Below are positions 1-48,640 of a DNA stretch of 51,829 nucleotides, one piece after another (within the stretch, counting starts at the first letter, position 1; the number at the start of each line of letters is the position of its first letter). Both the position numbers and the translations under genes were made by a program. The DNA comes from Bacteroidota bacterium (lineage in GTDB: Bacteria; Bacteroidota; Bacteroidia; Chitinophagales; Chitinophagaceae). The notes below the pieces were generated by a model. That model had not been told where the DNA came from. It made no database searches and saw only the letters and a program-made list of their open reading frames with translations. The DNA is taken from contig JAPLEL010000077.1 of the NCBI GenBank assembly GCA_026391415.1, forward strand, positions 1-51,829, written 5' to 3'.

Positions 1-1595
1 TCTGCTTGCGTTCCTGCCAACACTTTTAAATTGTGTTTTTTATAAGAGCCAGAATAAGTAGCCTGTGCCAAATAAGTAGTTCTTGTGTTTGTTGAATAAG
101 ATTCACTCAAACTATTTGTACCTGGCCAAACACCCACATAATCATAAGAATTGGTTCCAACATTTGGTTGGTATATTCCTACATTTTTTACTTGTGTTTT
201 AGTATTAGGCACCCAATATTCGCGTGCCCAAAATGCTTCAACATCTATATTTTTTATAGGCTTATAATTAAAGCCAAGTTTGCTTAAAATAGAATTATTA
301 AAAACTTCAGTTGTTCCCCCGGCTTCTGCCTGTGCAAGTGGATTACGGTTATTACTTTGTCCTGCATTACCATACATATCAGGACCAAATTTGGCAGCAC
401 CAATTGGAATGATTCCTATGGCCTCTCTAATAATAAATTCTGCAGAACTAGTAGAAGGTGTGGTGGTGGTGTATTGGTTGTAATTTAAAACACCATGAAA
501 ACTAAGTTTGTCATTTACTTTCAAATCGGGATTCATTCTAATGTCTATTTTCTTATAGCTTGTATTAGGAACGATTCCTTTTTGGTCTAACAATGAAATA
601 GAAGTAAACATGCTTAGCTTTTCTCCACCTGCATTAATTGATATATTATGGTTTTGCATTAAACCAGAATTGACAAATAACAATTTCACCCAATCATTGT
701 CAATCACATCCATATTGTTTGCTGGTGTAGTTTTATATTTATCTATTAGCGCTTGCGCATAAATAAATGCTGCAGGATTTCCAGTACTATTTTGTTGCGC
801 CACATTACTCAAATTCATAAAATCAACAGCACTGGCTCTTTTAGGAATATCTGTTACATATTGTTGCGTAAGAAACATATTGTATCCAATTTGTAATTCT
901 TTTCCTTTAGCGCGTTTTGTAGTAACTAATATTACCCCATTTGCCGCTCTAGCGCCATAAACAGCTGTTGAAGCAGCGTCTTTTAAAATAGAGATAGTTT
1001 CAATTGCATTTGCATCAACATTATCAAAGCTAGAAACTACTCCATCTACTAAAATCAATGGACTTTGTCCTGCATAAATTGAACTTAATCCACGGATATT
1101 TATTGAAGCACCATCAGCACCCGGACGACCAGATTGTTGTGTAACGGTTACACCAGGAGCCAAACCTTGCAATAAATTACTAGATGTTGATACTTGTCTT
1201 TTAGTTAAATCTTCTGCTTTTAAAGTAACCACCGATCCTGTTAAGTTTACTTTCTTTTGCGTACCAAAACCAACTACTACCACATCATTTAGTTCTGTGA
1301 ATTTTTCATCTAGAACAACGGTTACGTTTAATTCAGTACCTAATATGATGGTTTTTGATACGAAGCCAACTGCGGTAAAAACCAATTTAGCACCTTTATT
1401 TAATTGAATACTAAATCTGCCATCTATTCCAGACAAATTGGTTTTTTTTGAATTAGGTTCGTTGATAACTACTCCCTCAATACCTTTTCCTGTAGCATCT
1501 TTTACCTGACCTCTATACGTTTGTGTTTGCGCAAACGTTGCTAATGAGCAAAGTAAAAGGCCAAGAAGCAGTAACAAAACTTTGGGCATTTTCAT
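1..1595 (-). CDS. SusC/RagA-family TonB-dependent outer-membrane receptor (N-terminal part)
   Basis: The reading frame is open from the ATG at 1595 to the window edge, giving 531 codons of a protein that normally has about 1000 residues, so the C-terminal barrel lies outside. It begins with a signal peptide ending near ATFAQ (about residue 22), followed by a carboxypeptidase-regulatory-like domain (about 25-105, TYRGQVKDATGKGIEGVVI). Next come the TonB-box-like VVVVGFGTQKKVNLTGSV and the plug domain with INIRGLSS, ILVDGVV and ILKDAASTAVYGARAANGVI, all typical SusC signatures. A second in-frame ATG lies two codons downstream. The family imports glycan oligosaccharides with a SusD lipoprotein, whose gene would be expected beyond the left edge. 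The gene lies 214 bp downstream of the AGE epimerase gene on the same strand, and its upstream region carries an AT-rich palindrome-like element. Confidence 0.93.
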   Translation of the reverse strand, partial: MKMPKVLLLLLGLLLCSLATFAQTQTYRGQVKDATGKGIEGVVINEPNSKKTNLSGIDGRFSIQLNKGAKLVFTAVGFVSKTIILGTELNVTVVLDEKFTELNDVVVVGFGTQKKVNLTGSVVTLKAEDLTKRQVSTSSNLLQGLAPGVTVTQQSGRPGADGASINIRGLSSIYAGQSPLILVDGVVSSFDNVDANAIETISILKDAASTAVYGARAANGVILVTTKRAKGKELQIGYNMFLTQQYVTDIPKRASAVDFMNLSNVAQQNSTGNPAAFIYAQALIDKYKTTPANNMDVIDNDWVKLLFVNSGLMQNHNISINAGGEKLSMFTSISLLDQKGIVPNTSYKKIDIRMNPDLKVNDKLSFHGVLNYNQYTTTTPSTSSAEFIIREAIGIIPIGAAKFGPDMYGNAGQSNNRNPLAQAEAGGTTEVFNNSILSKLGFNYKPIKNIDVEAFWAREYWVPNTKTQVKNVGIYQPNVGTNSYDYVGVWPGTNSLSESYSTNTRTTYLAQATYSGSYKKHNLKVLAGTQA

Positions 1596-1809: not shown

Positions 1810-3024
1810 CTATTTAATATTAGCATTGATTTCTAAAGAAGCAATGTTTTGATTTTCGTTTGTAATGCTAGAAAAGGTCTGCCAAATTTGAAATAAGGCC
1901 CTCGGAATATGAAAGCAACCTTTCCATTTACCACCTTTCATTTGCTGTAACACTTTACCTTCTCTATTTAAATAACCAAACCATTCTCCATTTTCAACAT
2001 CTCTAAAATGCTTCCAAGTATAGTCATGAACTTGATTAAAAGCATTTAAACATGCCGTATTTCCTGTGTAAGCATAGCCTTTTGCTAATGCTACTAATGC
2101 TTCTACGTGCACCCACCAAAGTTTTTGATCGGCCTCTAATTGCTGTAATGGTTGGCCTTTTACATCCATAAAATAGAAAATGCCACCATACTTTTTATCC
2201 CAACCATAAATAAGTGTGTCCAGCATTATTTTGGTTGCTTTTTCTATAAGTTCTTGATTACCAAGTCTTTTACCAATATCCATTACAAACCACATAGCTT
2301 CAATTGCATGGCCAGGATTTAACAATCTCCCTTCAAAAGAATCTACAAACTTTCCATCTGGGCTAATATTTTCAAGTATTAAACCAAATTCGGGTTGATA
2401 AAATTCTTCTAATAATTCTTTTAATAAAGATGGTACAGTAGATATAATAAAATCATCACCGAGTAAGTGTTCCATTTCATAAGAAAGGTTCACTAGAATC
2501 ATAGGAAGCGCAAAATTCTTCATTGGTCGGGTTCCTGAAATGGTTTTTTCATACTGCCCTTTCCAATTGTTTTTTCTAGCATTTATAGCGCTAAATGTTT
2601 GAATAGCAATGTCTTTGTGTTTTTGCAAGCCAGTAATCTTATACAATTCAGAAAAGGCCATCACCGCAAAACAGTCACTAAAAATATTATAAGGTTGCAC
2701 CAAAGGCAATCCTTCTTTTGTAAGAGAAAAATAAAATTGACCACTTTTATCTCTACCATATTTTTCTAAAAAATCGTCCCCTAATAAAGCCATATCAAGC
2801 CATTCTTGCTTCTTTTCTACTTTATTATACAACATGCTAAAACACCAAATCTGCCTGCCTTGTAACCAAACAAATTTGTCTGTGTCATACACTTTTCCCT
2901 GGGCATCTAAACAAGTAAAATAACCACCATTAACCCTATCTGGACTATTTTTTAACCAGAATGGTACTATATAATCTAGTAGTTCATTTTTGTATAATTC
3001 TGAATAAATCGATAACTGTTCCAT
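1810..3024 (-). CDS. AGE-family sugar epimerase/isomerase (N-acylglucosamine 2-epimerase-like)
   Basis: This 404-residue protein has the length and motifs of the (alpha/alpha)6-barrel AGE family: WLQGRQIW with R57, NPGHAIEAMW with H239 and E242, WWVHVEAL with H306, and FHIPRALF with H372. The arginine and histidines match the catalytic set of GlcNAc/ManNAc 2-epimerases and of YihS-type aldose-ketose isomerases. There is no signal peptide, so it acts in the cytoplasm. It is divergent from the ROK regulator (165 bp apart) and upstream of susC. Motifs alone do not separate GlcNAc-ManNAc epimerase from mannose isomerase. The neighbouring GH92 alpha-mannosidase favours mannose, while the NagX-like and phosphodiester-glycosidase genes favour amino sugars. 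No nanA or other sialic-acid gene is in view, so calling it NanE would go too far. Confidence 0.88.
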   Translation of the reverse strand: MEQLSIYSELYKNELLDYIVPFWLKNSPDRVNGGYFTCLDAQGKVYDTDKFVWLQGRQIWCFSMLYNKVEKKQEWLDMALLGDDFLEKYGRDKSGQFYFSLTKEGLPLVQPYNIFSDCFAVMAFSELYKITGLQKHKDIAIQTFSAINARKNNWKGQYEKTISGTRPMKNFALPMILVNLSYEMEHLLGDDFIISTVPSLLKELLEEFYQPEFGLILENISPDGKFVDSFEGRLLNPGHAIEAMWFVMDIGKRLGNQELIEKATKIMLDTLIYGWDKKYGGIFYFMDVKGQPLQQLEADQKLWWVHVEALVALAKGYAYTGNTACLNAFNQVHDYTWKHFRDVENGEWFGYLNREGKVLQQMKGGKWKGCFHIPRALFQIWQTFSSITNENQNIASLEINANIK

Positions 3025-3189: not shown

Positions 3190-4428
3190 ATGAACTTTTT
3201 AAAAGAATTAACGGAAGATGAACTGACTGGTGTGGCTTTTAAAAACATGAACCTTAAAAAAAACATCATTCGGTTACTGGATATTCAAGAAAAAGCCACC
3301 ATTTCTGATTTAGGAAAGGAATTTAATGTTAGTGCCCCAAAAATCACGAGCATTATTAATGAGTTAATTGAAGAAGGGATGGTAATGGATTATGGCAAAA
3401 TTGAATCTACAGGTGGCAGAAGGGCAAATCTATTTGGATTAGCTAATGATTCTGGATATTTTGTTGGGGTTGAAGTAAAAAAATATAGTGTGTCGTTGGG
3501 GCTCATCGATTTTAAAAAAAATCTAATTCGTGTAGAAGACAATTCGAGTTTTGTATTAGAAAACACCAAAGAGTCTTTACTTTCTCTCATAACTATTATC
3601 AAAGATTTTATAGACAGAATTAATATATCTAGAGATAAGATATTAAGTATTGGAATCAATTTAACTGGTCGTATAAATTATGCAACGGGCTACAGTTTCA
3701 GTTATTATCATTTCGACGAAGACCCACTTAGTAAAATTATAGAGAGAGAATTAGGCATTAAAACCTACTTAGATAATGATTCTCGTGCCATGGCATTTGG
3801 AGAGTTTTGTATTGGTGTTGTAAAAAGCGAAAAAAATGTACTCTTTATAAACCTCGATTATGGAATAGGTATTGGAATTATGATAGAAGGTCAGTTGTAT
3901 TATGGGAAGTCTGGTTTTTCAGGAGAGTTTGGACATATTCCATTTTTCGATAATGAAATTATTTGTCATTGCGGAAAAAAAGGCTGCCTAGAAACAGAAG
4001 CATCCGGGCAAGCATTAATAAAAAAGTTTCAAGAAAAAAGAAAAGCTGGTTTTGGCTCTATCCTTCCTACAGCTGGTAAAAAAATTGAAGAAATTACTTT
4101 AGAAGATATTGTAATGGCCTGTAATCAAGACGATGTGCTTGCCATAGAATGTATTGCTGAAATAGGAGAAAAATTAGGCAAAGCAATTGCCATGCTAATA
4201 AATATTTTTAATCCAGAATTAGTCATATTAGGAGGATTATTATCTACTACAAAAGACTATATAAGATTTCCTATTAAAAGTACCTTAAATAAATATTCAT
4301 TAAGCCTTGTAAGTAATGATACGCAGTTAAAAATCTCTAAGCTAGGTGCTAGAGCAGGCGTAAATGGCGCATGTTTGCTTGTAAGGAATAAGCTCTTATC
4401 TACTAATCTGGGTGGTAGTTCTAACTAG
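3190..4428 (+). CDS. ROK-family transcriptional regulator
   Basis: This 412-residue protein has an N-terminal winged helix-turn-helix (about residues 24-75, ATISDLGKEFNVSAPKITSI) followed by a ROK domain. The ROK zinc site is intact: GEFGHI with H249, then CHCGKKGCLE with C259, C261 and C266. The phosphate-binding DxGxT loop is degenerate (GVEVKKYSVSLG near 93-104), and the usual NDAN motif reads NDSR (196-199). It is therefore probably a sugar-responsive repressor or activator like NagC/Mlc rather than a kinase. It is divergent from the AGE gene and only 25 bp upstream of the GH92-oxidoreductase gene, probably co-transcribed with it. The inducer is likely a mannose or amino-sugar derivative made by the locus (inference). 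Confidence 0.92.
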   Translation: MNFLKELTEDELTGVAFKNMNLKKNIIRLLDIQEKATISDLGKEFNVSAPKITSIINELIEEGMVMDYGKIESTGGRRANLFGLANDSGYFVGVEVKKYSVSLGLIDFKKNLIRVEDNSSFVLENTKESLLSLITIIKDFIDRINISRDKILSIGINLTGRINYATGYSFSYYHFDEDPLSKIIERELGIKTYLDNDSRAMAFGEFCIGVVKSEKNVLFINLDYGIGIGIMIEGQLYYGKSGFSGEFGHIPFFDNEIICHCGKKGCLETEASGQALIKKFQEKRKAGFGSILPTAGKKIEEITLEDIVMACNQDDVLAIECIAEIGEKLGKAIAMLINIFNPELVILGGLLSTTKDYIRFPIKSTLNKYSLSLVSNDTQLKISKLGARAGVNGACLLVRNKLLSTNLGGSSN

Positions 4429-4453: not shown

Positions 4454-7400
4454 ATGAAAAAATGTTTCTATGTTTCTTTGCTAGCATTTCTATTATTAAC
4501 ACAGTTAGTTGCTGCACAAAGTTTAATTCAATTTGTAAATCCTTTTATTGGTACAGGTGGCCATGGACATACCTATCCAGGCGCAACAGTTCCTTTTGGT
4601 ATGGTGCAACTTAGCCCCGATAATGGCAGTTCGGGTTGGGATTGGTGTAGCGGTTATAATTATAGCGATACCGTAATTGCAGGTTTTTCGCACACACATT
4701 TAAGCGGAACAGGTATTGGAGATCTTTGTGATATTTCAATGATGCCCGTCTTTAATAAAAAAGCCGATACAATAAATAATTTATATACTTTTTCTCATGC
4801 AAACGAAAAAGCTTCTCCTGGATTTTATTCAGTAAAACTTAATAATGGCATTTCTGTAAAGTTAACAGCGTCAAAACATACGGGAATTCAAGCGTATCAA
4901 TATCCTGAAAATGTTCAACAACAAGTTAAACTCGATTTGGGTTGGGCTATTAATTGGGATGCTACAAAAGAAACGAATCTTAATAAAGTTAATGATTCAA
5001 CATTTACCGGATATCGATTTTCTACAGGATGGGCCAAAAAACAAAAAGTATATTTTGTAATTCAGTTTAGCAAAAAGGTAATTAGATTAGACACATTGCA
5101 CTATAAGAGTGGTCAGGGAATGACTGCATTATTTCAATTTAATAATAAACAAACTATAGTAGAAACAAGGGTTGCTTTATCGAACAAATCTATTGAAGCT
5201 GCTATTAAAAATTTAGCGGAAATATCAAACAAAAATTTTAAAACAATACAATCAGCTGCTGAGGAAAATTGGGAAAAAGAATTATCGGTCATTAAAATAA
5301 AATCAACAGATAAAGATGTGCTAGTAAATTTTTATACTGCACTATACCATACTTTTCTTACCCCTGTTTTATTTAGCGATATTGGCGATACAACTTTGTA
5401 TAGTACCTTTTCGTTGTGGGATACTTTTAGAGCAGCTAATCCATTATTTAGTATTACGCAACCCGCTTTAGTAAAAGATATCATTAATTCATTCTTACAT
5501 TTTTACGAAGAGAAAGGTCGTTTACCGGTATGGGATTTAATGAATAGCGAAACCAATACTATGACTGGTTATCATGCTGTTCCTATAATAGCTGATGCCA
5601 TCTTAAAAGACAACCGCGGTTTTAATTGGAACAAAGCATATGAAGCCATGCTTGCATCAGCCATGCAAAAAGAAAGAGGTACAGAAGCATACAGACAATA
5701 CGGCTATTTACCACAAAACAAACACGGATGGAGTGTTACCATTACTTTAGAATATGCTTATGATGATTGGTGTATTGCGCAGGTAGCAAAGAAAATGGGC
5801 AATGAAAAAGATTATCAAATATTTTCAAATCGTGCAAATTCCTATAAAAATCTTTTTGATCCAGTAACAGGCTTTTTTAGGGCAAAAAATAGTGATGGGC
5901 AATTTTTAAAACAGTTTGATCCGTATTTAAGTGAACATGGTTTTGACGGACAATATATTGAAGGTACTGCATGGCAACATAGTTGGTTTGTACCTCAAGA
6001 CGTAAATGCACTAATGCGTTTACATGGAGGAAAAGAAAAGTTTGTAAACAAACTCGATTCTTTATGGACTGTTTCATCAAAAGTAACTGGAGAAAATGCA
6101 TCGGCAGATATTAGTGGAATGATTGGTCAATATGCACATGGCAATGAACCTAGCCATCATATTGCATACTTATATGCCGCAGTTGGATTGCCTTATAAAG
6201 GAGCAGAAAAATTGCGACAAATTTCAACCACCCTATATAAAAATGCAATAGACGGATTGTGCGGCAATGAAGACTGCGGACAAATGAGTGCCTGGTATGC
6301 ATTTAATGCACTAGGGTTTTATCCTATGAATCCATCTTCGGGAGATTATTATTTTGGTAGTCCTTTAATTGATCAGGCAATTATAAACTTGCCCAATAAT
6401 AAAAAATTTACCATTCAGGTAAAAAATAATAGTTCGAAAAATATTTACATAGCAAGTATTTTATTAAACGGAAAAAAATATCTAAAAGATTATATTTCTC
6501 ATGCCATTATTATGCAAGGTGGCAACTTAGAAATAACAATGAGTAATACGCCTCACTTGCAAACTGAAGTATTAGTTGTTGGTGGAAGCACTGGTGGAAC
6601 TGCTGCTGGAATTCAAAGCGCCAGACTTGGTGTGAACACAATGATTGTTGAAGAAACACCTTGGTTAGGTGGAATGCTTTCTGCAGCAGGCGTTACTGCA
6701 ACAGACGGAAATAATAATTTACCTAGTGGCATTTGGCAAGAATTAAGAGATGCATTATACCAGCATTATCAAACAAAAAAATTAAATACCGGCTGGGTTA
6801 GTAATACTTTGTTTGAGCCCTATGTTGCAGATAGTATTTTTAAATCATGGGCTGATAAAGAAACTAATTTACGTGTTAATTATGGTTGGTATTTTGATTC
6901 GGCTTTAGTAAAAAATGGAAAAATAGTTGGCGTACAATTTATTAATGCTAAAAAAGAACACCTAATTGTAGAAGCGAATACAATAGTTGATGGAACAGAT
7001 TTGGGAGACGTATTTGCAAACGCAAAAGCCGAATATGATTTGGGAATGGAAGATGCTATTTATAGTGGAGAAAAAGAAGCCCCTGGTAAAAACGATATCA
7101 TTCAAGATCTTACTTGGGCGGCTACGCTACAAGATTATGGGCCAAATGCAAGCAACAATATTCTAATAGACAAAGATTTGTTTTACCCCATTTCATTAAC
7201 CGAATTTGATTGCAGCACTTTAAATGCACCTTGTCCTGAAGGCAAACCATATAATGCAAATACCCAAAAAGTATTAGACTATGGTAGACTTCCTAAAAAC
7301 AAATTCATGTTAAATTGGCCTGCACATGGAAATGATTATTATATAAATGCCATTCATTTAAAACCAATAGATCGACCTAGTTTTTATACCCCTGCTAAAA

Positions 7401-8323
7401 AACAAACACTAGCATTTGTATATTATATTCAACAGGTTTTAGGATTTAAAAATATTGGACTAGATACCACACAGTTTCCTACAAAAGACCATTTAGCATT
7501 AATGCCCTATCATAGAGAAGGCAGGAGATTAAAAGGTGTTGTTCGATTTAGTTTGCCACACATGAACCAAACATTTAATCAACCACAAGCTTTGTATAGA
7601 ACAGGCATTGCTGTTGGTGATTACCCAGTAGACCACCATCATGGAAAAAATAAATTAACACCAAGCATTCAATTTCCGGCAGTTAATTCTTTTAATATTC
7701 CATTAGGATCATTAATTCCAAATAAATTAAACGGACTTGTTGTTTGTGAAAAAGGCATCTCTGTTTCAAACCTTGCCAATGGGAGTACCAGACTTCAACC
7801 ATGTGTGCTTTTAACAGGTCAAGCGGCTGGCATTCTTGCAGCGTTATCTGTTCAACAAAACAAAGAACCAAGAGCAGTTGCGGTGAGAGAAGTACAAGCA
7901 ATATTATTAAAACAAAAAGGCTTTTTAATGCCTTATGTAGATGTATTACCAACAGATACTGCATTTGCCGACATCCAAAAAATTGGCGCAACTGGTATAT
8001 TAAGAGGTACCGGAAAAAAAGAAGGATGGGCAAATAAAATGTATTTTTATCCAGATAGTATTTGCAATAGCAAGGAGTTGGCAAAAAACTTATTGGCATT
8101 TATCAGTCAAATAAAATTGCCAGCATTAAACAATAATGTAACCTTAGCTGATATTAAAAAAATTCAACAAAGTTTCATTGCTATTAATCCTAAAAATAAC
8201 TATTTACAAATTACAGAGCAATATGGCAACAGGGATTTAACTCGTAAAGAGGTATGCATATTAATACAAAAATATTGTGATCCATTTTCAATTCCTATTA
8301 ACCATATAGGTCTTCAGAATTAA
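4454..8323 (+). CDS. GH92 alpha-mannosidase fused to FAD-dependent oxidoreductase
   Basis: This secreted 1289-residue protein has a signal peptide (MKKCFYVSLLAFLLLTQLVAAQS). Residues about 24-698 form a full GH92 domain: FVNPFIGTGGHGHTYPGATVPFG near the N-terminus, GNEPSHHIAYLY at 563-574, and GNEDCGQMSAWYAF at 604-617. GH92 enzymes are calcium-dependent inverting exo-alpha-mannosidases, and the acidic pair E606/D607 corresponds to the conserved catalytic segment (usually DD, here ED). A second complete domain starts at about residue 705: EVLVVGGSTGGTAAGIQSAR is a dinucleotide-binding Rossmann motif, followed by WLGGM, IVDGTDLGDV, MPYHREGRR and YPVDHHHGK. This is the pattern of secreted FAD-dependent oxidoreductases (FAD_oxidored type). 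A short tail near 1160-1200 looks SLH-like. No stop or frame break separates the halves. The order suggests sugar oxidation linked to mannosidase action; the oxidised substrate is unknown. Confidence 0.92.
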   Translation: MKKCFYVSLLAFLLLTQLVAAQSLIQFVNPFIGTGGHGHTYPGATVPFGMVQLSPDNGSSGWDWCSGYNYSDTVIAGFSHTHLSGTGIGDLCDISMMPVFNKKADTINNLYTFSHANEKASPGFYSVKLNNGISVKLTASKHTGIQAYQYPENVQQQVKLDLGWAINWDATKETNLNKVNDSTFTGYRFSTGWAKKQKVYFVIQFSKKVIRLDTLHYKSGQGMTALFQFNNKQTIVETRVALSNKSIEAAIKNLAEISNKNFKTIQSAAEENWEKELSVIKIKSTDKDVLVNFYTALYHTFLTPVLFSDIGDTTLYSTFSLWDTFRAANPLFSITQPALVKDIINSFLHFYEEKGRLPVWDLMNSETNTMTGYHAVPIIADAILKDNRGFNWNKAYEAMLASAMQKERGTEAYRQYGYLPQNKHGWSVTITLEYAYDDWCIAQVAKKMGNEKDYQIFSNRANSYKNLFDPVTGFFRAKNSDGQFLKQFDPYLSEHGFDGQYIEGTAWQHSWFVPQDVNALMRLHGGKEKFVNKLDSLWTVSSKVTGENASADISGMIGQYAHGNEPSHHIAYLYAAVGLPYKGAEKLRQISTTLYKNAIDGLCGNEDCGQMSAWYAFNALGFYPMNPSSGDYYFGSPLIDQAIINLPNNKKFTIQVKNNSSKNIYIASILLNGKKYLKDYISHAIIMQGGNLEITMSNTPHLQTEVLVVGGSTGGTAAGIQSARLGVNTMIVEETPWLGGMLSAAGVTATDGNNNLPSGIWQELRDALYQHYQTKKLNTGWVSNTLFEPYVADSIFKSWADKETNLRVNYGWYFDSALVKNGKIVGVQFINAKKEHLIVEANTIVDGTDLGDVFANAKAEYDLGMEDAIYSGEKEAPGKNDIIQDLTWAATLQDYGPNASNNILIDKDLFYPISLTEFDCSTLNAPCPEGKPYNANTQKVLDYGRLPKNKFMLNWPAHGNDYYINAIHLKPIDRPSFYTPAKKQTLAFVYYIQQVLGFKNIGLDTTQFPTKDHLALMPYHREGRRLKGVVRFSLPHMNQTFNQPQALYRTGIAVGDYPVDHHHGKNKLTPSIQFPAVNSFNIPLGSLIPNKLNGLVVCEKGISVSNLANGSTRLQPCVLLTGQAAGILAALSVQQNKEPRAVAVREVQAILLKQKGFLMPYVDVLPTDTAFADIQKIGATGILRGTGKKEGWANKMYFYPDSICNSKELAKNLLAFISQIKLPALNNNVTLADIKKIQQSFIAINPKNNYLQITEQYGNRDLTRKEVCILIQKYCDPFSIPINHIGLQN

Positions 8324-9375: not shown

Positions 9376-10473
9376 TTAATTGTTTTTATAAATTGGCGTT
9401 TTTGATTCCTTGATTGTTTGATAATAAAATAAAACCTCTCCGTTATAACCTTCTTGTCTATTTAGGGAAATCATTTGTTGAATCATTAAACTATCTGCCC
9501 GATAACCATCTCCTAAAGAACTTAAAATACCCGGAAAGATTTTGTACTTACTATTACTAGGCAGATGCGTAGCAATGGCTTTTAGTGTTTGCGAATAACT
9601 GTCTAATTTATACCTATACACTTGTGGAATAATTAAATCGGCATAACCATCTTTTAACCAGGTTGGCCAATCTTGCAAATATTGTTCTTTACTCCATGGA
9701 TAAATACTAGGCGCCCAAGTAACCAAACAATTTGGATTTATTTTTTTTACACTGCTATATAAATTCTTTGCAAAATCGTTTAATTTATTTGCCCGCCAAC
9801 TAATCCATGCTGCATTTTTTGTATCGGATGGTGGTAGGCTGCCTTGGTTTTCTGATTGGTACATTTTAATAGTAAGGGCATCGTATCCACCTTCTGATGG
9901 CATTGCAGGAAGTCTATCGTCTCCTTGAATGCCGTCTACTTGATATTTATTAACAACTTCAAGCACTAATTTTTTTATAAATGATTGAACAGCTGGATTC
10001 ATTGCATTCCACCAAAAGAATCCGTTTTTTTTAAGTAATTCTCCCTTGCTATTTCTACCTACCCAATCAGGATATTTTTCTAGCCATTTATTTTTACTAC
10101 TGTCTTTGTAAGCGTATGAAAATCCAAATTCAAACCAAGCATGTACTCGTAAGCCAAGCTTATGGCCTTGTTCAACAAAAGCCAATAATGGATCGAAATT
10201 TTTAAAATTCGTGTCTTGTAAAATACCCGTATAAGATTTTACCAATGGGCTAGGATACATTGTTACACCATCATTCCAAACCACAACGAATATATCGGTA
10301 AGACCATTTTTTTTACAGTTCTCAACCGTTTCAATTACATTTTGTTTTGAATACATTGCAACACTAGCCGAACTAGTTATCCATGTTCCTTTAACTACTA
10401 TTGGATTTTTATATTGCGAATACCCAATAATTGCCAAATTAAAAATGGAAACTATTATTAAAAGAAATTTCAT
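9376..10473 (-). CDS. GHL10 / family-10-like glycosyl hydrolase
   Basis: This 365-residue protein has an N-terminal signal peptide (MKFLLIIVSIFNLAIIGYSQ). The remainder resembles the GHL10 (formerly DUF187) TIM barrel, with VKGTWITSSASVAMYSK, NGLTDIFVVVWNDGVTMYPS, HAWFEFGFSY, GIQGDDRLPAMPSEGGYD and DLIIPQVYRY. GHL10 members include YngK-type proteins whose substrates remain largely undefined. Acidic residues suited to glycoside hydrolysis occur at strand ends (the E of HAWFEFG, the DD of QGDDR). It lies between the DUF4434 and phosphodiester-glycosidase genes with 2-bp gaps on both sides, so the three are almost certainly translated from one mRNA. Periplasmic or extracellular location is likely. 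Confidence 0.85.
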   Translation of the reverse strand: MKFLLIIVSIFNLAIIGYSQYKNPIVVKGTWITSSASVAMYSKQNVIETVENCKKNGLTDIFVVVWNDGVTMYPSPLVKSYTGILQDTNFKNFDPLLAFVEQGHKLGLRVHAWFEFGFSYAYKDSSKNKWLEKYPDWVGRNSKGELLKKNGFFWWNAMNPAVQSFIKKLVLEVVNKYQVDGIQGDDRLPAMPSEGGYDALTIKMYQSENQGSLPPSDTKNAAWISWRANKLNDFAKNLYSSVKKINPNCLVTWAPSIYPWSKEQYLQDWPTWLKDGYADLIIPQVYRYKLDSYSQTLKAIATHLPSNSKYKIFPGILSSLGDGYRADSLMIQQMISLNRQEGYNGEVLFYYQTIKESKTPIYKNN

Positions 10474-10475
10474 TT

Positions 10476-11411
10476 TTAGCTCAGTTGATTTTTAAATGCT
10501 ATATATCGATTGTATAAATGATGCGCTTGAACATACGCAGACTGCGGGCTCATAAAATGCGAAAACTCAAAAGTAATTGCCTTGTCGTAACCTGCTCGTG
10601 CCGCTGCTTCTAGTTTTAATTTTAATTTTTCGAATTTGATGGGTAAAAATTTAATAGGCATATCTCTATCAAAAGATTCTGCATTTGTCCAACATTGTAA
10701 CTGGTATTTATCGGCTAATAATTTATTTATTTGAAAAAAGCTATCTAGTTCGTGGTATTCAATATGACCATCTTGAAAGGCAACAGCATCAATAGATTGG
10801 TGAATGCCATCAAATATTTCATTCCATTCGTTTTCGTGTTCCTTTAATGAAATAGCATCTGTTTTTGATAAATTACCAGAAGCGGCCATCACTGCTTTTT
10901 TACCATCAATCCAGGGAGAAATAAAAACAGGCAGATTACTACTAACATCTTTACACATTTTACCTAATCCACTAAATGCCTCTATTGCTCCTTTTGTTTT
11001 TCTACTAATTTCAGTACTTAAATACCATCCTTTAAAAGCTTTTCTATGGCCATATAAATTCCATACTTCATCAATAACAAAACGGTTTGCGTCAATTTCA
11101 AAAGTCAAATTACCTGTGTCCCAATATTTTCCACTATCATACAAGCCAAAATAAAGCTGCATTTCGTTTTTTTCGGCAAGCGTTAAAAACAAATCAATCA
11201 AATCAATTGGAGGCGTATAACAGTTGTGTTTATCTATTAAATATTTAGAGGGATAAGTAATAAAATTTCTATAGCCACACCGAATAACAATAACCGTATC
11301 TATGCCTGCGGCTTTCATGTGTTTAAAATCATTTTCCCACTCAACTGTTCCCCAATTTTGATGGGGAATATCATGACTTATTTCATCTATAAATGTGCCG
11401 GTTAATAACAT
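10476..11411 (-). CDS. DUF4434 domain protein, putative TIM-barrel glycosidase
   Basis: This 311-residue protein starts MLLTGTFIDEISHDIPHQNW, and the segment WENDFKHMKAAGIDTVIVIRCGYR is characteristic of DUF4434 proteins, a TIM-barrel family next to glycoside hydrolases in Bacteroidota. Further support comes from QLYFGLYDSGKYWD, GWYLSTEI, VFISPWIDG and AVAFQDGH, which resemble barrel strands ending in acidic residues. No signal peptide is seen, so unlike its neighbours it probably works in the cytoplasm, possibly on a product brought in by the transporter encoded 49 bp upstream. No specific reaction can be assigned. Confidence 0.8.
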   Translation of the reverse strand: MLLTGTFIDEISHDIPHQNWGTVEWENDFKHMKAAGIDTVIVIRCGYRNFITYPSKYLIDKHNCYTPPIDLIDLFLTLAEKNEMQLYFGLYDSGKYWDTGNLTFEIDANRFVIDEVWNLYGHRKAFKGWYLSTEISRKTKGAIEAFSGLGKMCKDVSSNLPVFISPWIDGKKAVMAASGNLSKTDAISLKEHENEWNEIFDGIHQSIDAVAFQDGHIEYHELDSFFQINKLLADKYQLQCWTNAESFDRDMPIKFLPIKFEKLKLKLEAAARAGYDKAITFEFSHFMSPQSAYVQAHHLYNRYIAFKNQLS

Positions 11412-11460: not shown

Positions 11461-12738
11461 TTATGTGCCTTCCAATTCAGGTGCTTTTAGCGGAACAAGC
11501 CAAGTAATAATAAACGCCGGGATTGTTGAAATAAGTACCCAAATAAAAAAATCTTTATATCCTAAATAGTCACTAACAAAACCACTAATCATAGAAGGCA
11601 CCATGAAACCTAAATTCATTAATCCACTTCCAAAAGCATAATGCGCCATTTTGTATTTTCCAGGCGCCATATTTTGCATGATAAAAAGTATCAACCCAAT
11701 AAACCCAAATCCATAGCCAAAGTATTCCACTGCAATGGCTATGCCTATCACCATTAAATTATCTGGTATATATACTGCCAAATAAGCATAGGCTAAAAAA
11801 GGAATATTAAAAAAGCTACATAATATTAATAATGATTTTCTGGTTAATCCTTTATTTGAAATAAAATAACCTGCCGCAATTGAACCAATCACAAAAGCCA
11901 ATGAACCAAATACACCATATAAAAGGCCTATTTGAGAAGTGGTTAATCCTAATCCTCCTTCGGATCTTGCTGCTTTAAAAAATAATGGTGTTATTTTAAT
12001 TGCTTGCCCTTCAGCAAAACGATAGAACACAATAAAACAAAGGCTATACCAAATATTTTTTTTCTGGAAAAAAGTAATAATTACGTCTTTTAGAATGGCA
12101 AGACCTTCTTTTAAATTTTGTGGTTGGGTATTGTTTTCATTATCAGGAAGCACCGTTCTATTGTATAAACCTAAAATGACCATCATCACTCCATATAAAA
12201 ACATAACCACCATCCAAGCAGTAGCAACACCTTGTTTTTTTTCTAGCTCACCTGCCAAGTACACCAAAATTCCACCAGAAAATATTTTTGCAATATTATA
12301 AAATGCGCCCTGCCATCCAACATAAGTAGCCTGCATTTTGGGGCTTAGCTCATTTAAATAAACACCATCAGCAGCTGTATCATGGGTAGCACCACTAAAC
12401 GCAATGATGGCAAATAGTGCTATAGAAAAAACAAAAAAATGGTTTAAATGAAGGGTTAATGCAATCAAACCAAAAACACAACCTGTAAAAATTTGAGTGC
12501 TGTAAACAAAAAACTTTTTCGTTTTAAACATCTCTAAAAAAGGCCCCCATAAAGGCTTTATGGTCCAGGGTAACATAATTAAGGATGTCCAAAAAGCAAT
12601 TTGTGAATCAGAAATGCCCATGTTTTTATACATGATAGAACTAGCTGCTGCAAGCGCAACAAATGGTAGCCCCATAGCAAACCAAGTAGACGGAACCCAG
12701 TAAATTGGATTCCTTTTATTAGTTGGGTTTATTGGCAC
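11461..12738 (-). CDS. MFS transporter, PAT/AmpG-like
   Basis: This 425-residue hydrophobic protein has about 12 membrane segments. The N-terminal portion (WFAMGLPFVALAAASSIMYKNMG, then FWTSLIMLPWTIKPLWGPFLEMF) matches the layout of PAT-type MFS permeases such as AmpG, which import amino-sugar muropeptides. FSGATHDTAADG in the fourth or fifth segment also fits. The frame starts at a GTG at 12738; the nearest upstream ATG is out of frame, so GTG is the best start. It is the first gene of the operon running to the phosphodiester glycosidase and probably brings the released saccharide into the cytoplasm. Its promoter region, shared with the divergent NagX-like gene, contains a perfect 20-bp palindrome. 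Confidence 0.85.
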   Translation of the reverse strand: MPINPTNKRNPIYWVPSTWFAMGLPFVALAAASSIMYKNMGISDSQIAFWTSLIMLPWTIKPLWGPFLEMFKTKKFFVYSTQIFTGCVFGLIALTLHLNHFFVFSIALFAIIAFSGATHDTAADGVYLNELSPKMQATYVGWQGAFYNIAKIFSGGILVYLAGELEKKQGVATAWMVVMFLYGVMMVILGLYNRTVLPDNENNTQPQNLKEGLAILKDVIITFFQKKNIWYSLCFIVFYRFAEGQAIKITPLFFKAARSEGGLGLTTSQIGLLYGVFGSLAFVIGSIAAGYFISNKGLTRKSLLILCSFFNIPFLAYAYLAVYIPDNLMVIGIAIAVEYFGYGFGFIGLILFIMQNMAPGKYKMAHYAFGSGLMNLGFMVPSMISGFVSDYLGYKDFFIWVLISTIPAFIITWLVPLKAPELEGT

Positions 12739-12869: not shown

Positions 12870-14264
12870 ATGATGCAGAAAAGAAATGAAAGTTTAGACG
12901 CCTTGCGCGGTTTGGCAATTTTAGGAATGGTTTTATCTGGAAGTATTGCGTTTGGAAATGTATTGCCTGCATGGATGTACCATGCACAAGTACCGCCGCC
13001 CAATCATATATTTCATCCTGATCTTCCAGGCATTACATGGGTTGATCTAGTTTTTCCATTTTTTTTATTTTCAATGGGCGCAGCCATTCCATTATCGTTT
13101 GAAAATAAATTAAAAGATCCGCCATGGTACAATACCGCTTGGTTAATTGCAAAAAGAGGATTATTGCTTTGCTTCTTTGCCATTTTTTTAGACCATGTTA
13201 AAGACTATATGTATGGTAATGAAAATAATATGGTGTATTTATTTGGCATTCTAGGCTTTGTTTTATTGCATGTATTACTTGTAAAATGGCCATTTGCAAT
13301 AAACAACAAAATAAGTGTTGGATTAAAATTATGTTCCTTAATAATAGCAGCAATAATGCTTTGGCAATTTCATTTTAAAGATGGTTCAGGGTTTAAAATA
13401 ACAAGAATGGATATTATTATTGTAGTACTTGCAAACATGGCTGTATTTGCTTCTATTATATGGATTTTTACAAAAAACCATCCTATTCATCGCTTGCTAG
13501 TACTACCTATTGTAATGGGTATATTTTTAAGTAATACTAACAATATCAGTTGGCAACATGAACTGTACAATTTTACCCCAATAAACGGTTTATATAGTTT
13601 TTATTATCTCAAGTATTTATTTATTGTAATCCCTGGAACAATTGCTGGAGAATGGTTGCAAGCATATAGTAGAGGGCCGGAAAAAAATAATATATCAGAT
13701 AAAAACAAAACAATCTTGCTAGCTCTTTTATTAGTGTCAATAATAGTTGTAAATCTTATTGGATTATTTCAACGCTATTTATTCGTCAATTTAATTGGCT
13801 CAATTATTTTAATCGTTGTTATTGTTTCAATTAATAGAAAGTTGAATAATGTAAATAACGCATCTAATTATTTTATACAAGCAGGAAGTTATTTGTTGCT
13901 ATTAGGATTAATTTTTGAAGCTTATGAAGGTGGTATTAAAAAAGACCATTCAACTTATAGTTACTACTTTGTAACATCGGGGTTAGCCTTTTTATTATTA
14001 TATGCTTTTATTGTTTTAGAAAGCAAAGAAGTACTAAAAGTGCCCATTAATTTTCTGGCAAATATCGGCAAGAATCCAATGGTGGCATATGTTTCAGGAA
14101 GTTTACTTATTACGCCTATTTTACATTTAAGTGGATTAAATTATTATTTTAATTTATTAAATGCTACCGCTTTTAGTGGATTTTTAAAAGGTGTTATTTA
14201 TACAGGTCTTGTTGCTTTGATAACCTTGTTTTTTGTTGAGAAAAAATATTTCTGGAAAACGTAG
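12870..14264 (+). CDS. NagX-like (DUF5009 / HGSNAT-type) membrane acyltransferase
   Basis: This 464-residue polytopic protein opens with RNESLDALRGLAILGMVLSG, the signature of the family related to heparan-alpha-glucosaminide N-acetyltransferase and bacterial NagX. GITWVDLVFPFFLFSMGAAI and the C-terminal IGKNPMVAYVSGSLLI are also typical. Family members span the inner membrane about 11-12 times and are thought to move acetyl groups across it onto amino sugars. In Bacteroidota they commonly sit in GlcNAc-use clusters, which fits the AGE epimerase and PAT-like transporter here. Two adjacent ATG codons (12870 and 12873) could serve as start. The gene is divergent from the transporter operon. Confidence 0.87.
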   Translation: MMQKRNESLDALRGLAILGMVLSGSIAFGNVLPAWMYHAQVPPPNHIFHPDLPGITWVDLVFPFFLFSMGAAIPLSFENKLKDPPWYNTAWLIAKRGLLLCFFAIFLDHVKDYMYGNENNMVYLFGILGFVLLHVLLVKWPFAINNKISVGLKLCSLIIAAIMLWQFHFKDGSGFKITRMDIIIVVLANMAVFASIIWIFTKNHPIHRLLVLPIVMGIFLSNTNNISWQHELYNFTPINGLYSFYYLKYLFIVIPGTIAGEWLQAYSRGPEKNNISDKNKTILLALLLVSIIVVNLIGLFQRYLFVNLIGSIILIVVIVSINRKLNNVNNASNYFIQAGSYLLLLGLIFEAYEGGIKKDHSTYSYYFVTSGLAFLLLYAFIVLESKEVLKVPINFLANIGKNPMVAYVSGSLLITPILHLSGLNYYFNLLNATAFSGFLKGVIYTGLVALITLFFVEKKYFWKT

Positions 14265-14563: not shown

Positions 14564-17062
14564 TTAGTTTTGAATGATTAGCTTTTTAGGTTGATACTTG
14601 GCTCCTTCGGCTTCTAGCTGAAGGATATAGCCATTGGTATTAATTGTTTGATTCATTTCAACCAATACTTTGTTATCTCCAGCAACTGCATTAATTGATT
14701 TACTCAATTGAAGTACCCCTGTATTAATGTCTACCAATTTTAAGGTAACAACTATTGCTTTCTCCGATTTAAAGCTTGCAGTGAATCTTCCCTTACTTGG
14801 GTTTGGATACAATTGTACTTCTTTAATGCTTACTACATCGGCTGGGGCAAGTAATGATTTACTAAATGCTACTTGTTCTATTTTAGCGGTAATAGCAGTT
14901 GGTGTTGCGGTTGGAACTTCTAGTGCAAAAATAACGGTAGTAATATCTGATGGGTTGATATTTCCTTTTCCGGTACTCGTTGCAAAATCTGCTAATGCAA
15001 TACTATATTCTTTACTATCTGCCGATAATGGTTGATAGAAACTATATTGGTCGGCCCAATTGCTTACACCCGCTTTTACTAGCGTAATGCGCATATTAGC
15101 ACCTGTTGCTGCTGCAGTAAATTTAATGGCTTTATAAGCGGTTAAATCTTGTACAGCGCCACCTCCCTTTAATAATTTATATACAGTTGTATAATCGCTG
15201 GTAGTTGCCGCAACTTGTACATTTCTAAATAATGGGTAGTCTTCTTTAGGTGTATTGGCAATATTTGGATCATTTTGAATAGTAAACGATTTTAACACAG
15301 TGGTGTTTTTATTGTAGTCTACATTCCAAGTGCCATCAGCCATAAATACTACGTCTTGTAATTGATTGTTCAAGTACAAACTAATGGATGATTCGTAAGA
15401 ATCGCTTACAGGTATTGAAACGCTTGATTTAGTATTCGCACCAACGCTAATTGCAACATTTCTTTTACTAATGGCAGTGGTATTTTCGGCAAGTCTTTCT
15501 TCTATTTGAAAATAACCTGTTGCTGCAGTTGTTGTATTATTGATTGAAAAATTAAGATTCGTTCCGTCTCTTTTTCCTGAAACAATATAAGTTTTTGGCA
15601 ATGCTGTTCCGCTATTTAATGCTTGTACAGGCATTATGGCATTTAGTTTTTCTAAAATTTCTAAAGCCATATCTATGCAGTAAAAAGGTGTTGCTCCCCA
15701 AACTTGGTAATTATACATGGTTTCTTCAGGCGTATAATTTTGTGTTAGCCAATTTGATTGAAAAGAAAAATTAGACCTGCCTGTTTTTGTACCTACAGAA
15801 AAACTCATGGCATATTCTGTACTACCACTTGGTTGCAATAAAGTATAGCGAACAAAATTTAGGTTGTTAATACTAATATTTTCCATTCCCAATAGTGAGG
15901 CACCTTTTAATCGGTCGCAAACGGGTTTGGTATGATCATATAATTGACCCAATGTTTTAGTAACAAATGCTACTGCACGGCAATTATTGTTAAGGGTAAA
16001 ATCTACTGAACGAACTTCCGTTGCATTACTGAAACTAGTAATATCTGCTGCCGTTGTAACATAAGCAGTATAGCCAGGGTCAATCATTTTACTTGGCATG
16101 ATATCGGCCAAACCTAAAGCAGCATTGGGTCCTACACCTGTTACAGTATTACGGATATCTGTTGCAACCAATGGCATTTTTGCATAATTGATAGCACCTT
16201 GTGTACTATTAACTGCGTTATTAAAAATTCTTTTTGCAACAGCATCGCCTAAACTTTTACTTTCTAATCCACCTTGCTGTCCTGAATTTGAATCATCGCC
16301 ATCATGATCGGTTTTTGGAATTTTTTCTTTTTTCGCTACACAATCCGGCGATGACATTGTTATAATAAATAATAGGTCGTTAAAATCATGGTCGCAATTA
16401 GGATCATCTCTGCGAATATCTTCAAGACCAACTATATAACGTTTCGAATCTTCGTCATAAATTAAAACAGAATGTTTTTTTAGGTCTGGATTGGCTTCTG
16501 GATTAAATCGATTATCGGTATATAATTGACCCAAACCTGGAGTAACTATTTCATTGCTATTATCCCAACCATTGGATAATAAAACAAATCCTATAGATGT
16601 ATTGGCAGGAAAATTACCAAAAAAAACTTTGTCTCCTGTTTTTAATCCGCCGCCATAGCCGCCCTTTGAAGCGTTAGGGAAAATGATTTTAATACTATTG
16701 GGGGTTGGTGCAACTGTTAACGGTGAATTTGTTGGGTAAGTATAATAACCAAATGAATTTTGATAACTAGCCCCTTCATCAAAAAAACTAATCCAAACAT
16801 CTGAGCTACAAGTTGTGGAAATATTTTCTGGAATATTGTTGGCTATTAATTTAAGATTATATGTAGGAACAGGTCGTCCTTCTGGTAAAGTAGTTTGGAT
16901 ATTATTTTTTAGGGTGTCAGAAATTTTTTCAAATGGCATAACCAAATATTTTGGGCAACCATCTGAATAATAAGTACCCATTGAAAGATATTGTGCTTTA
17001 GCTGCAACACTGACTGTAATAAATAATAAACCTAAAAATATTTTTTGTATAACTGTTTTCAT
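14564..17062 (-). CDS. Secreted DUF4114-domain protein with T9SS C-terminal sorting domain
   Basis: This 832-residue protein has a signal peptide (ending AAKAQ, about residue 24). A DUF4114-like segment covers roughly 130-236, with RYIVGLEDIRRDD (209-220) and CDHDFNDLLFII (223-234); this acidic motif suits calcium binding. A central beta-rich region of unknown role follows. The last 90 residues start with VQLYPNPSKGRF and end in KLIIQN, the type A sorting domain used by the type IX secretion system, so the protein should be exported and anchored or released at the cell surface. It stands alone, with its own terminator and a -7-like element at 17121-17128. Function is unknown; adhesion or binding is plausible for such repeat-poor surface proteins. 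Confidence 0.86.
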   Translation of the reverse strand: MKTVIQKIFLGLLFITVSVAAKAQYLSMGTYYSDGCPKYLVMPFEKISDTLKNNIQTTLPEGRPVPTYNLKLIANNIPENISTTCSSDVWISFFDEGASYQNSFGYYTYPTNSPLTVAPTPNSIKIIFPNASKGGYGGGLKTGDKVFFGNFPANTSIGFVLLSNGWDNSNEIVTPGLGQLYTDNRFNPEANPDLKKHSVLIYDEDSKRYIVGLEDIRRDDPNCDHDFNDLLFIITMSSPDCVAKKEKIPKTDHDGDDSNSGQQGGLESKSLGDAVAKRIFNNAVNSTQGAINYAKMPLVATDIRNTVTGVGPNAALGLADIMPSKMIDPGYTAYVTTAADITSFSNATEVRSVDFTLNNNCRAVAFVTKTLGQLYDHTKPVCDRLKGASLLGMENISINNLNFVRYTLLQPSGSTEYAMSFSVGTKTGRSNFSFQSNWLTQNYTPEETMYNYQVWGATPFYCIDMALEILEKLNAIMPVQALNSGTALPKTYIVSGKRDGTNLNFSINNTTTAATGYFQIEERLAENTTAISKRNVAISVGANTKSSVSIPVSDSYESSISLYLNNQLQDVVFMADGTWNVDYNKNTTVLKSFTIQNDPNIANTPKEDYPLFRNVQVAATTSDYTTVYKLLKGGGAVQDLTAYKAIKFTAAATGANMRITLVKAGVSNWADQYSFYQPLSADSKEYSIALADFATSTGKGNINPSDITTVIFALEVPTATPTAITAKIEQVAFSKSLLAPADVVSIKEVQLYPNPSKGRFTASFKSEKAIVVTLKLVDINTGVLQLSKSINAVAGDNKVLVEMNQTINTNGYILQLEAEGAKYQPKKLIIQN

Positions 17063-48604: not shown

Positions 48605-48640
48605 TTTCAATTGGGCTTGTAAAAACGATGGAAAAGAATA

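What the first reader, a model, noticed from the sequence alone, without database searches (positions are those of the whole stretch)
4454..8323. Complete GH92 mannosidase joined in frame to a complete secreted FAD-dependent oxidoreductase
Seen: one uninterrupted 1289-codon frame with a single signal peptide, GH92 motifs up to about residue 620 and a Rossmann FAD motif beginning at about 705, both halves full-length. Known: GH92 enzymes release alpha-linked mannose; FAD_oxidored-type proteins are common in Bacteroidota glycan loci but of mostly undefined activity. Inference: the fusion couples redox modification of a sugar to its hydrolysis, so that a modified mannoside is made or removed in one step. 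I do not know this pairing as a described architecture.
Basis: partly seen in the sequence, partly recalled or inferred. Interest (0 to 1): 0.75.

Follow-up and report, generated by a model that had tools for sequence, protein, structure and literature searches.

The report
Mannosidase fused to glycan-locus flavoenzyme
A Bacteroidota genome joins a sugar-cutting mannosidase and an exported-looking flavin enzyme into one protein; the same two families are joined in the opposite order in other bacteria, which points to an uncharacterised flavin enzyme that works alongside glycan-cutting enzymes.

Summary
Window 4454-8323 (+) encodes one 1289-aa protein: signal-peptide-like start, complete GH92 (27-697), complete FAD_oxidored PF12831 (705-1151), and a tail modelled as SLH-like. 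It is not an assembly error: a 97% relative (a cluster of 35 sequences) and four relatives at 70-72% have the same architecture.

The pairing is not unique. The reverse order, FAD then GH92, occurs in other clusters, and the FAD-domain tree rejects one clade for both orders (p-AU 0.001); the GH92 tree does not decide. The FAD family is also fused to some ten other families, mostly glycan enzymes, and several of these are its separate neighbours in loci with an amino-sugar epimerase. In 45 loci of related genomes GH92 lies within 10 kb of the FAD gene in 7 (0.48 expected), the epimerase family in 18 (0.28 expected).

So the fusion joins two members of one probable glycan pathway. That flavin chemistry and mannoside hydrolysis form one coupled step is not supported; the FAD substrate is unknown.

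The parts
4454..8323 (+). GH92-FAD_oxidored fusion gene, 1289 aa
4454..4519 (+). signal-peptide-like start, residues 1-22 (judged by eye)
   Evidence: no predictor run
4532..5182 (+). GH92 N-terminal domain PF17678, residues 27-243
5201..6544 (+). GH92 catalytic domain PF07971, residues 250-697
5960..5962 (+). Glu503, aligns with the GH92 general acid (BT3130 Glu535, BT3990 Glu533)
   Evidence: alignment; residue roles from passages of PMC5930347 and PMC10167667; the chain-to-residue offset is my inference
6272..6274 (+). Asp607, aligns with a GH92 general base (BT3130 Asp637, BT3990 Asp644); the position of BT3990 Asp642 is Asn605
   Evidence: same offset inference
6545..6565 (+). junction, residues 698-704; almost no linker
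6566..7906 (+). FAD_oxidored PF12831, residues 705-1151
   Evidence: AlphaFold2 model of residues 701-1289, mean pLDDT 90.9
7907..8320 (+). C-terminal domain, residues 1152-1289, SLH-like fold in the model
3190..4428 (+). ROK-family (NagC/Mlc-like) regulator or kinase, 25 bases upstream of the fusion, same strand
1810..3024 (-). N-acyl-D-glucosamine 2-epimerase AGE (NCBIfam equivalog, 637.4 bits, cut-off 600)
3..1595 (-). TonB-dependent receptor with plug and carboxypeptidase-like domains (SusC-like), cut by the contig end
8342..9373 (-). NAGPA phosphodiester glycosidase family protein
9376..10473 (-). GHL10 glycosyl-hydrolase-like protein
10476..11411 (-). DUF4434 protein
11461..12738 (-). 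MFS transporter, AmpG-like by NCBIfam but under the cut-off
12870..14264 (+). DUF5009 membrane protein, weakly like the glucosamine N-acetyltransferase NagX (under the cut-off)

Best explanation
An exported bifunctional enzyme of an amino-sugar and mannose glycan locus. Shown: an intact GH92 module with the general acid and one general base in place, and an intact FAD module, joined with almost no linker just downstream of a ROK gene, where the nearest relatives have the FAD gene alone. Inferred: in the periplasm or at the cell surface, GH92 trims terminal alpha-mannose from an oligosaccharide taken up by the SusC-like receptor, and the FAD module, a two-electron oxidoreductase, acts on a sugar of the same oligosaccharide before or after that. 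Neighbouring NAGPA, GHL10 and DUF4434 proteins complete the breakdown, and the amino sugar enters the cell through the MFS protein and is handled by AGE and possibly a kinase. The fusion tethers two sequential enzymes that already share loci; it is not one coupled reaction.
For: Intact domains and catalytic residues. Two fusion orders whose FAD domains do not form one clade (p-AU 0.00107; tree). Unfused adjacent genes in both orders: GH92 then FAD gene on one strand in L023 and L026, FAD gene then GH92 with one stop between in L186 and L187. GH92 within 10 kb of the FAD gene in 7 of 45 loci against 0.48 expected, the AGE family in 18 of 45 against 0.28. Fusion partner families that recur as neighbours: GH92, GHL10, DUF4434, NAGPA, GDSL, metallophosphatase, BNR, SusD. 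In 121 FAD domains, W781, E788, Q884, D885, W955, D961, Y1019, R1021, E1022, R1025, D1060, H1062, K1100, R1113 and Q1115 are identical in 121 of 121, as expected of an active enzyme. In L017-L020 the nearest unfused FAD genes (68-70%) follow ROK directly, as the fusion does.
Against: 'Acts on a sugar' rests on context alone: matches of the FAD half to solved structures cover mostly 40-60 N-terminal profile positions and at most about 150, in the 60 of 164 rows shown, and fold matches are to the general flavoprotein fold. 70 of the 79 unfused FAD loci show no recognised GH92 in the stretch held, though many stretches are short. In 244 genomes of the family only the window's own has the GH92 fusion. 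The Poisson values ignore relatedness of the genomes. In the best GH92 tree the two fused groups fall on one side of a branch (support 35), so one origin of the GH92 halves is neither shown nor rejected. NAGLU, GMC and beta-lactamase-like partners were not seen among the neighbours, though only 25 of 99 neighbour families are shown. How an exported protein gets its FAD is not explained.
Confidence: 0.55

Rival explanations
1. Incidental operon fusion: two adjacent co-expressed genes were joined by loss of the stop and of the second leader; each domain works as before, and the tether gives only fixed stoichiometry. The FAD reaction is in the same pathway but not on GH92's substrate or product.
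For: The FAD family is fused to some ten unrelated families, as expected if almost any neighbour can be joined. Unfused tandem genes abut with one stop between in L186 and L187.
Against: GH92 is joined in two opposite orders whose FAD domains are not one clade, and the GH92-first form is kept in the window and in five database clusters down to 70% identity; a useless tether might be expected to be lost more often.
Confidence: 0.3
2. The FAD module is redox-neutral: flavin briefly oxidises a sugar so that a glycosidic bond or substituent can be eliminated, then gives the hydride back. The partners (mannosidase, esterase, phosphatase) remove caps before this step.
For: Constant FAD residues with cap-removing partners. 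One partner is a GMC oxidoreductase nearest, among solved structures, to fructose dehydrogenase. Oxidation-assisted glycoside cleavage is described for other enzyme families (starts of abstracts in the listing, for example PMC10628242, PMC10646112).
Against: The cases in that listing use GMC or Gfo/Idh/MocA enzymes, not PF12831. No residue-level evidence for such a mechanism here.
Confidence: 0.12
3. The FAD module does not act on carbohydrate: it is, for instance, a quinone-, thiol- or enoate-type oxidoreductase whose electrons serve another need of the locus.
For: The best structural matches include fumarate and urocanate reductases, though these reflect the common fold.
Against: Most recognised fusion partners and many neighbours are glycan enzymes or SusC/SusD.
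Confidence: 0.12
4. Assembly or frameshift artefact joining two genes.
For: The genome is fragmented, 306 contigs, and reads could not be checked.
Against: Same architecture in five database clusters and in a contig of another MAG.
Confidence: 0.01

Closest known systems
GH92 exo-alpha-mannosidases BT3130 (PDB 6f8z by residue numbering, my inference) and BT3990 (PDB 2wvx, likewise)
   Same: full-length N-terminal and catalytic domains; general acid Glu and a general base Asp conserved
   Different: here a complete flavoenzyme follows. The abstract of PMC10167667 says most characterised GH92 consist of one catalytic domain and a few have extra domains such as putative CBMs; the words oxidoreductase and FAD have 0 occurrences in that text
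Stand-alone PF12831 FAD_oxidored proteins (e.g. P0122; loci L017-L020)
   Same: 68-70% identity over nearly the whole FAD half including the C-terminal domain; same slot after ROK in L017-L020
   Different: own leader, no GH92 domain
Reverse fusion FAD-GH92 (P0007, P0289, P0301 and others)
   Same: the same two families in one chain
   Different: opposite order, leader on the FAD half (lipoprotein-like in several, by eye), P0007-P0010 43-44% identical, elsewhere in the FAD tree
Flavin glycoside 3-oxidases and pyranose oxidases (GMC superfamily)
   Same: flavin enzymes that act on sugars in glycoside breakdown (listing)
   Different: different family: P0001 matches PF12831 and no GMC model. GMC occurs only as a fusion partner
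Bacteroidota sialic acid (nan) locus
   Same: epimerase, TonB-dependent receptor with SusD-type partner, ManNAc to GlcNAc conversion and RokA kinase (passages of PMC3969230)
   Different: no neuraminate lyase or sialidase among the 29 of 38 ORFs of 150 aa or more that I scanned in this window; the words FAD and oxidoreductase have 0 occurrences in that paper

Membership tests
GH92 (Pfam PF17678 + PF07971) | full-length match to both domains above the curated cut-off | tested here: met
   244.7 and 544.9 bits against 34.5 and 24.6; also TIGR01180, 641 bits against 249.55
GH92 | general acid Glu and general base Asp | tested here: met
   Glu503 and Asp607 by alignment to 6f8z and 2wvx, roles from passages; the second base Asp of BT3990 (Asp642) is Asn605 here, and also Asn in 6f8z
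GH92 | calcium-dependent exo-alpha-mannosidase activity | not testable with these tools
   needs purified protein
FAD_oxidored PF12831 | full-length match above the cut-off | tested here: met
   279.7 bits against 27, profile 1-416 of 416
FAD_oxidored PF12831 | glycine-rich dinucleotide motif and conserved acid after it | tested here: met
   G710 and G715 119 of 119, E733 119 of 121; that the acid binds ribose is recalled
FAD_oxidored PF12831 | bound FAD and a redox reaction | not testable with these tools
   no assay
SLH domain (PF00395), C-terminal 138 aa | profile match | tested here: not met
   no SLH match for window 7907-8320 at E up to 1; two distant FAD_oxidored relatives, P0331 and P0332, do match SLH after the FAD domain
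SLH domain | SLH fold | tested here: inconclusive
Polysaccharide utilisation locus | SusC and SusD pair with glycan enzymes | tested here: inconclusive
   SusC-like receptor cut by the contig end; no SusD among the 29 of 38 ORFs scanned. In relatives, SusC lies in 21 of 79 unfused FAD loci, and SusD models match 15 of 121 scanned neighbours of the AGE-bearing loci
GMC sugar oxidases | GMC_oxred domains | tested here: not met
   no GMC match in P0001 at E up to 0.001

The most novel reading that the evidence does not exclude
The exported PF12831 flavoenzyme is the constant core of an undescribed flavin-dependent branch of glycan breakdown in Bacteroidota: it oxidises (or redox-cycles) one residue, probably an amino sugar of the GlcNAc/ManNAc kind, of periplasmic oligosaccharides, and recruits interchangeable cap-removing enzymes by adjacency or fusion. 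Its SLH-like tail, of the fold that binds ManNAc/GlcNAc polymers in Gram-positive walls, together with AGE and a phosphodiester glycosidase family, would make bacterial cell-wall glycopolymers a candidate substrate.
Probability: 0.22. Interest if true: 0.8.

Novelty: new variant of a known kind. Interest (0 to 1): 0.56.

Why it matters
Two known families are joined in an architecture about which none of my ten paper searches listed a paper, and they are joined in two opposite orders. That gives an experimental handle on a large, uncharacterised exported flavoenzyme family: fusions and neighbours say which enzymes it works with (alpha-mannosidase, alpha-GlcNAcase, phosphodiester glycosidase, esterases, phosphatases), so its substrate can be sought among glycans that such enzymes would process. 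If the FAD step is needed for glycan breakdown, accounts of Bacteroidota glycan loci that list hydrolases and lyases only are incomplete.

Tried and rejected
Assembly error: rejected in practice. One origin of both fusion orders: rejected for the FAD domain. For the GH92 domain one search found the two fused groups on one side of a branch with support 35, neither shown nor rejected; the unfused GH92 sampled there were nearly all close to P0001. Domain order from the Pfam column: misleading, since FAD-first proteins list GH92 first too; the order was taken. Open-frame lengths of 1482 and 1491 aa for G509 and G573 looked like further fusions; translation showed two adjacent genes with one stop between. 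Two cysteines invariant in the 48 near relatives as a general feature: rejected, C in 58 and 50 of 121 rows. SusD as a fusion partner is weak: in P0242 only the last 90 or so residues match a SusD profile end. Sialic acid locus: no lyase or sialidase among the 29 of 38 window ORFs scanned; one search shows only 25 of 99 families, so absence elsewhere is not shown. (391 genomes of the class of G509, 100 with a match) was aimed at the wrong group and not used. (314 genomes of the order of G474) was used only through one locus, L195, read: a metallophosphatase-FAD gene followed by an SGNH-like gene (judged by eye, no profile run). Structure search of the FAD half gave only the common flavoprotein fold; absence of a closer relative there proves nothing. 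Paper searches were badly chosen and listed unrelated papers. The papers that held several of my terms (PMC10651915, PMC11345257, PMC8256616) were seen as listings only.

Rows left out: before the tally, I dropped 13 of the 134 candidate neighbours to stay under the residue limit (mostly the longest and some at stretch ends); those 134 come only from the 20 AGE-bearing loci with such neighbours, within 9 kb of the FAD gene. The FAD tree used a chosen subset: 24 of the 120 proteins P0122-P0241, 45 loci from L049 up with a FAD gene of 561-699 aa, and 52 fusion proteins with most NAGLU near-copies left out. Partner counts are hand counts of its listing, recounted once.
Full report
What is there. 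The window holds one ORF at 4454-8323 on the + strand, 1289 codons from ATG, translated without a stop. Pfam finds the GH92 N-terminal domain at residues 27-243, the GH92 catalytic domain at 250-697 and FAD_oxidored PF12831 at 705-1151, the last over its whole profile. NCBIfam agrees on GH92 (TIGR01180, 641 bits, cut-off 249.55). Alignment to solved GH92 enzymes places Glu503 and Asp607 on the general acid and a general base (roles from passages of PMC5930347, and PMC10167667; the numbering offset is my inference). The join has almost no linker: GH92's end runs straight into what is the mature N-terminus of stand-alone FAD proteins.

Is it real. A search with the whole protein listed the best 120 of 7998 matches; nine of these carry both families. 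Positions show that P0002-P0006 have GH92 first, like the window (P0002 97% identical, a cluster of 35 sequences; the others 70-72%), while P0007-P0010 have FAD first. A contig of another MAG (L016) encodes the same arrangement after a ROK gene, 98% identical over residues 1-416 of the FAD half and cut by its end. An assembly fault is thus excluded in practice.

Other fusions. A search scored only on the FAD half, but limited by length to proteins long enough to hold more, gave 103 matches among the 7993 candidates scored. By hand count of that listing the partners are NAGLU/GH89 (22), metallophosphatase parts (15), SGNH or GDSL esterase types (15), GH92 with its catalytic domain (15: five GH92-first, ten FAD-first), DUF4434 (7), NAGPA (2), GHL10 (2), GMC oxidoreductase (2), SusD (2, fragmentary), BNR (1) and beta-lactamase-like (1); some proteins carry two partners, and others of the 103 show no second family. 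Ten chosen proteins scanned against Pfam confirm nearly complete FAD_oxidored domains beside these partners. A further GMC-FAD fusion lies in Thermoflavifilum (L084); its GMC half is nearest, among solved structures, to fructose dehydrogenase.

Independent origins. In a tree of 121 FAD domains the six GH92-first sequences share a fully supported branch (100) with three unfused proteins, P0122, P0127 and P0132, far from the FAD-first group; that group itself needs four changes of label on the tree. Forcing both orders into one clade costs 866 log-likelihood units, p-AU 0.00107 (quick tree, LG+G4 without mixture). The GH92 tree does not decide: both fused groups lie on one side of a branch, support 35. 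Unfused adjacent genes exist in both orders: GH92 then FAD gene on one strand in L023 and L026 (in L026 GH92 is split over two frames), and FAD gene then GH92 with one stop between in L186 and L187.

Neighbourhood. In the window the fusion follows a ROK gene, with AGE, NAGPA, GHL10, DUF4434, an MFS transporter, DUF5009 and a cut SusC-like receptor around it. Of 80 loci with a relative of the FAD half (the best 80 of a capped list), one (L016) is the GH92 fusion. In the other 79 the stretch held contains ROK in 23, AGE in 21, SusC in 21, GHL10 in 13, DUF5009 in 12, DUF4434 in 10, GH92 in 9, MFS in 4 and NAGPA in 2 (matches to the window's own proteins at E 1e-10). Many stretches are short, so these are lower bounds. 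Of 121 further neighbours in AGE-bearing loci, SusD models match 15, GHL10 7, GDSL 5 and each metallophosphatase end domain 2; a BNR protein stands beside the FAD gene in L061 and a GDSL protein in L066. So most, not all, fusion partner families also occur as neighbours; NAGLU, GMC and the beta-lactamase-like partner were not seen there. In 244 genomes of the family, 44 have the FAD gene at E up to 1e-100, 46 matches in all. For the 45 loci outside the window's genome, GH92 lies within 10 kb in 7 (0.48 expected from genome density, Poisson 8e-7) and AGE in 18 (0.28 expected, 1e-26). These values ignore relatedness and use rounded genome sizes. In the same genus G087 has an unfused 70% relative between ROK and DUF5009, the slot in which the window has the fusion; G164 has an unfused 58% relative and G216 none.

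What it most likely does. Shown: two intact domains in one exported-looking chain; repeated association of the two families; loci with an amino-sugar epimerase. Inferred: GH92 trims alpha-mannose and the FAD module oxidises a sugar of the same oligosaccharide, one after the other, tethered for convenience. Not shown: the FAD substrate, the electron acceptor, the loading of FAD outside the cytoplasm, and any coupling of the two reactions.

Novelty. Ten paper searches listed no title or abstract start about the pairing; two of them were poorly aimed, most subscription papers are not held, and the few papers holding several of the terms were not opened. I saw the listings, plus passages of PMC5930347, PMC10167667, PMC10154615 and PMC3969230. 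None of the 25 listed of the 328 papers holds 'PF12831'. No architecture database was searched. I rate it a new variant of a known kind: known families, an architecture that I did not find described, and a wider pattern that makes an uncharacterised flavoenzyme testable.

Recounting led to these mends: five database clusters, not six, share the GH92-first form; 52, not 51, fusion proteins were in the tree; 29 of 38 window ORFs were scanned; the GH92 tree's result against two origins is told; the habitat word was dropped.

Noticed in passing
window 7907-8320: The FAD half ends in a domain whose model matches only SLH domains, which in the listed structures bind pyruvylated ManNAc/GlcNAc (titles); odd in Bacteroidota.
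   Followed up: partly
L084:8180-11740: 1186-aa fusion of a GMC sugar-dehydrogenase-like domain with FAD_oxidored in Thermoflavifilum: two flavoenzymes in one chain.
   Followed up: partly
L042:8987-11818: FAD_oxidored protein of Sediminibacterium magnilacihabitans with about 340 residues before the FAD domain that match no Pfam family at E up to 0.001; the start codon was chosen mechanically.
   Followed up: no
P0263, P0309: Triple fusions: metallophosphatase, FAD_oxidored and SGNH esterase in a 1419-aa protein; metallophosphatase parts, FAD_oxidored and DUF4434 in a 1524-aa protein.
   Followed up: no
P0300: FAD_oxidored fused to a beta-lactamase-family domain (PF00144), a family that also holds esterases and peptidases (recalled).
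   Followed up: no
window 3-1595: SusC-like receptor cut by the contig end; a SusD partner, if any, may lie off the contig.
   Followed up: no
window 14564-17062: 832-aa protein with DUF4114 and a weak, sub-threshold type IX secretion tail; 834-aa relatives lie downstream of the unfused FAD gene in L018-L020, so the locus is partly syntenic.
   Followed up: partly
window 30150-31724 and 46217-48610: ORFs of 524 and 797 aa without any Pfam match at E up to 0.001.
   Followed up: no
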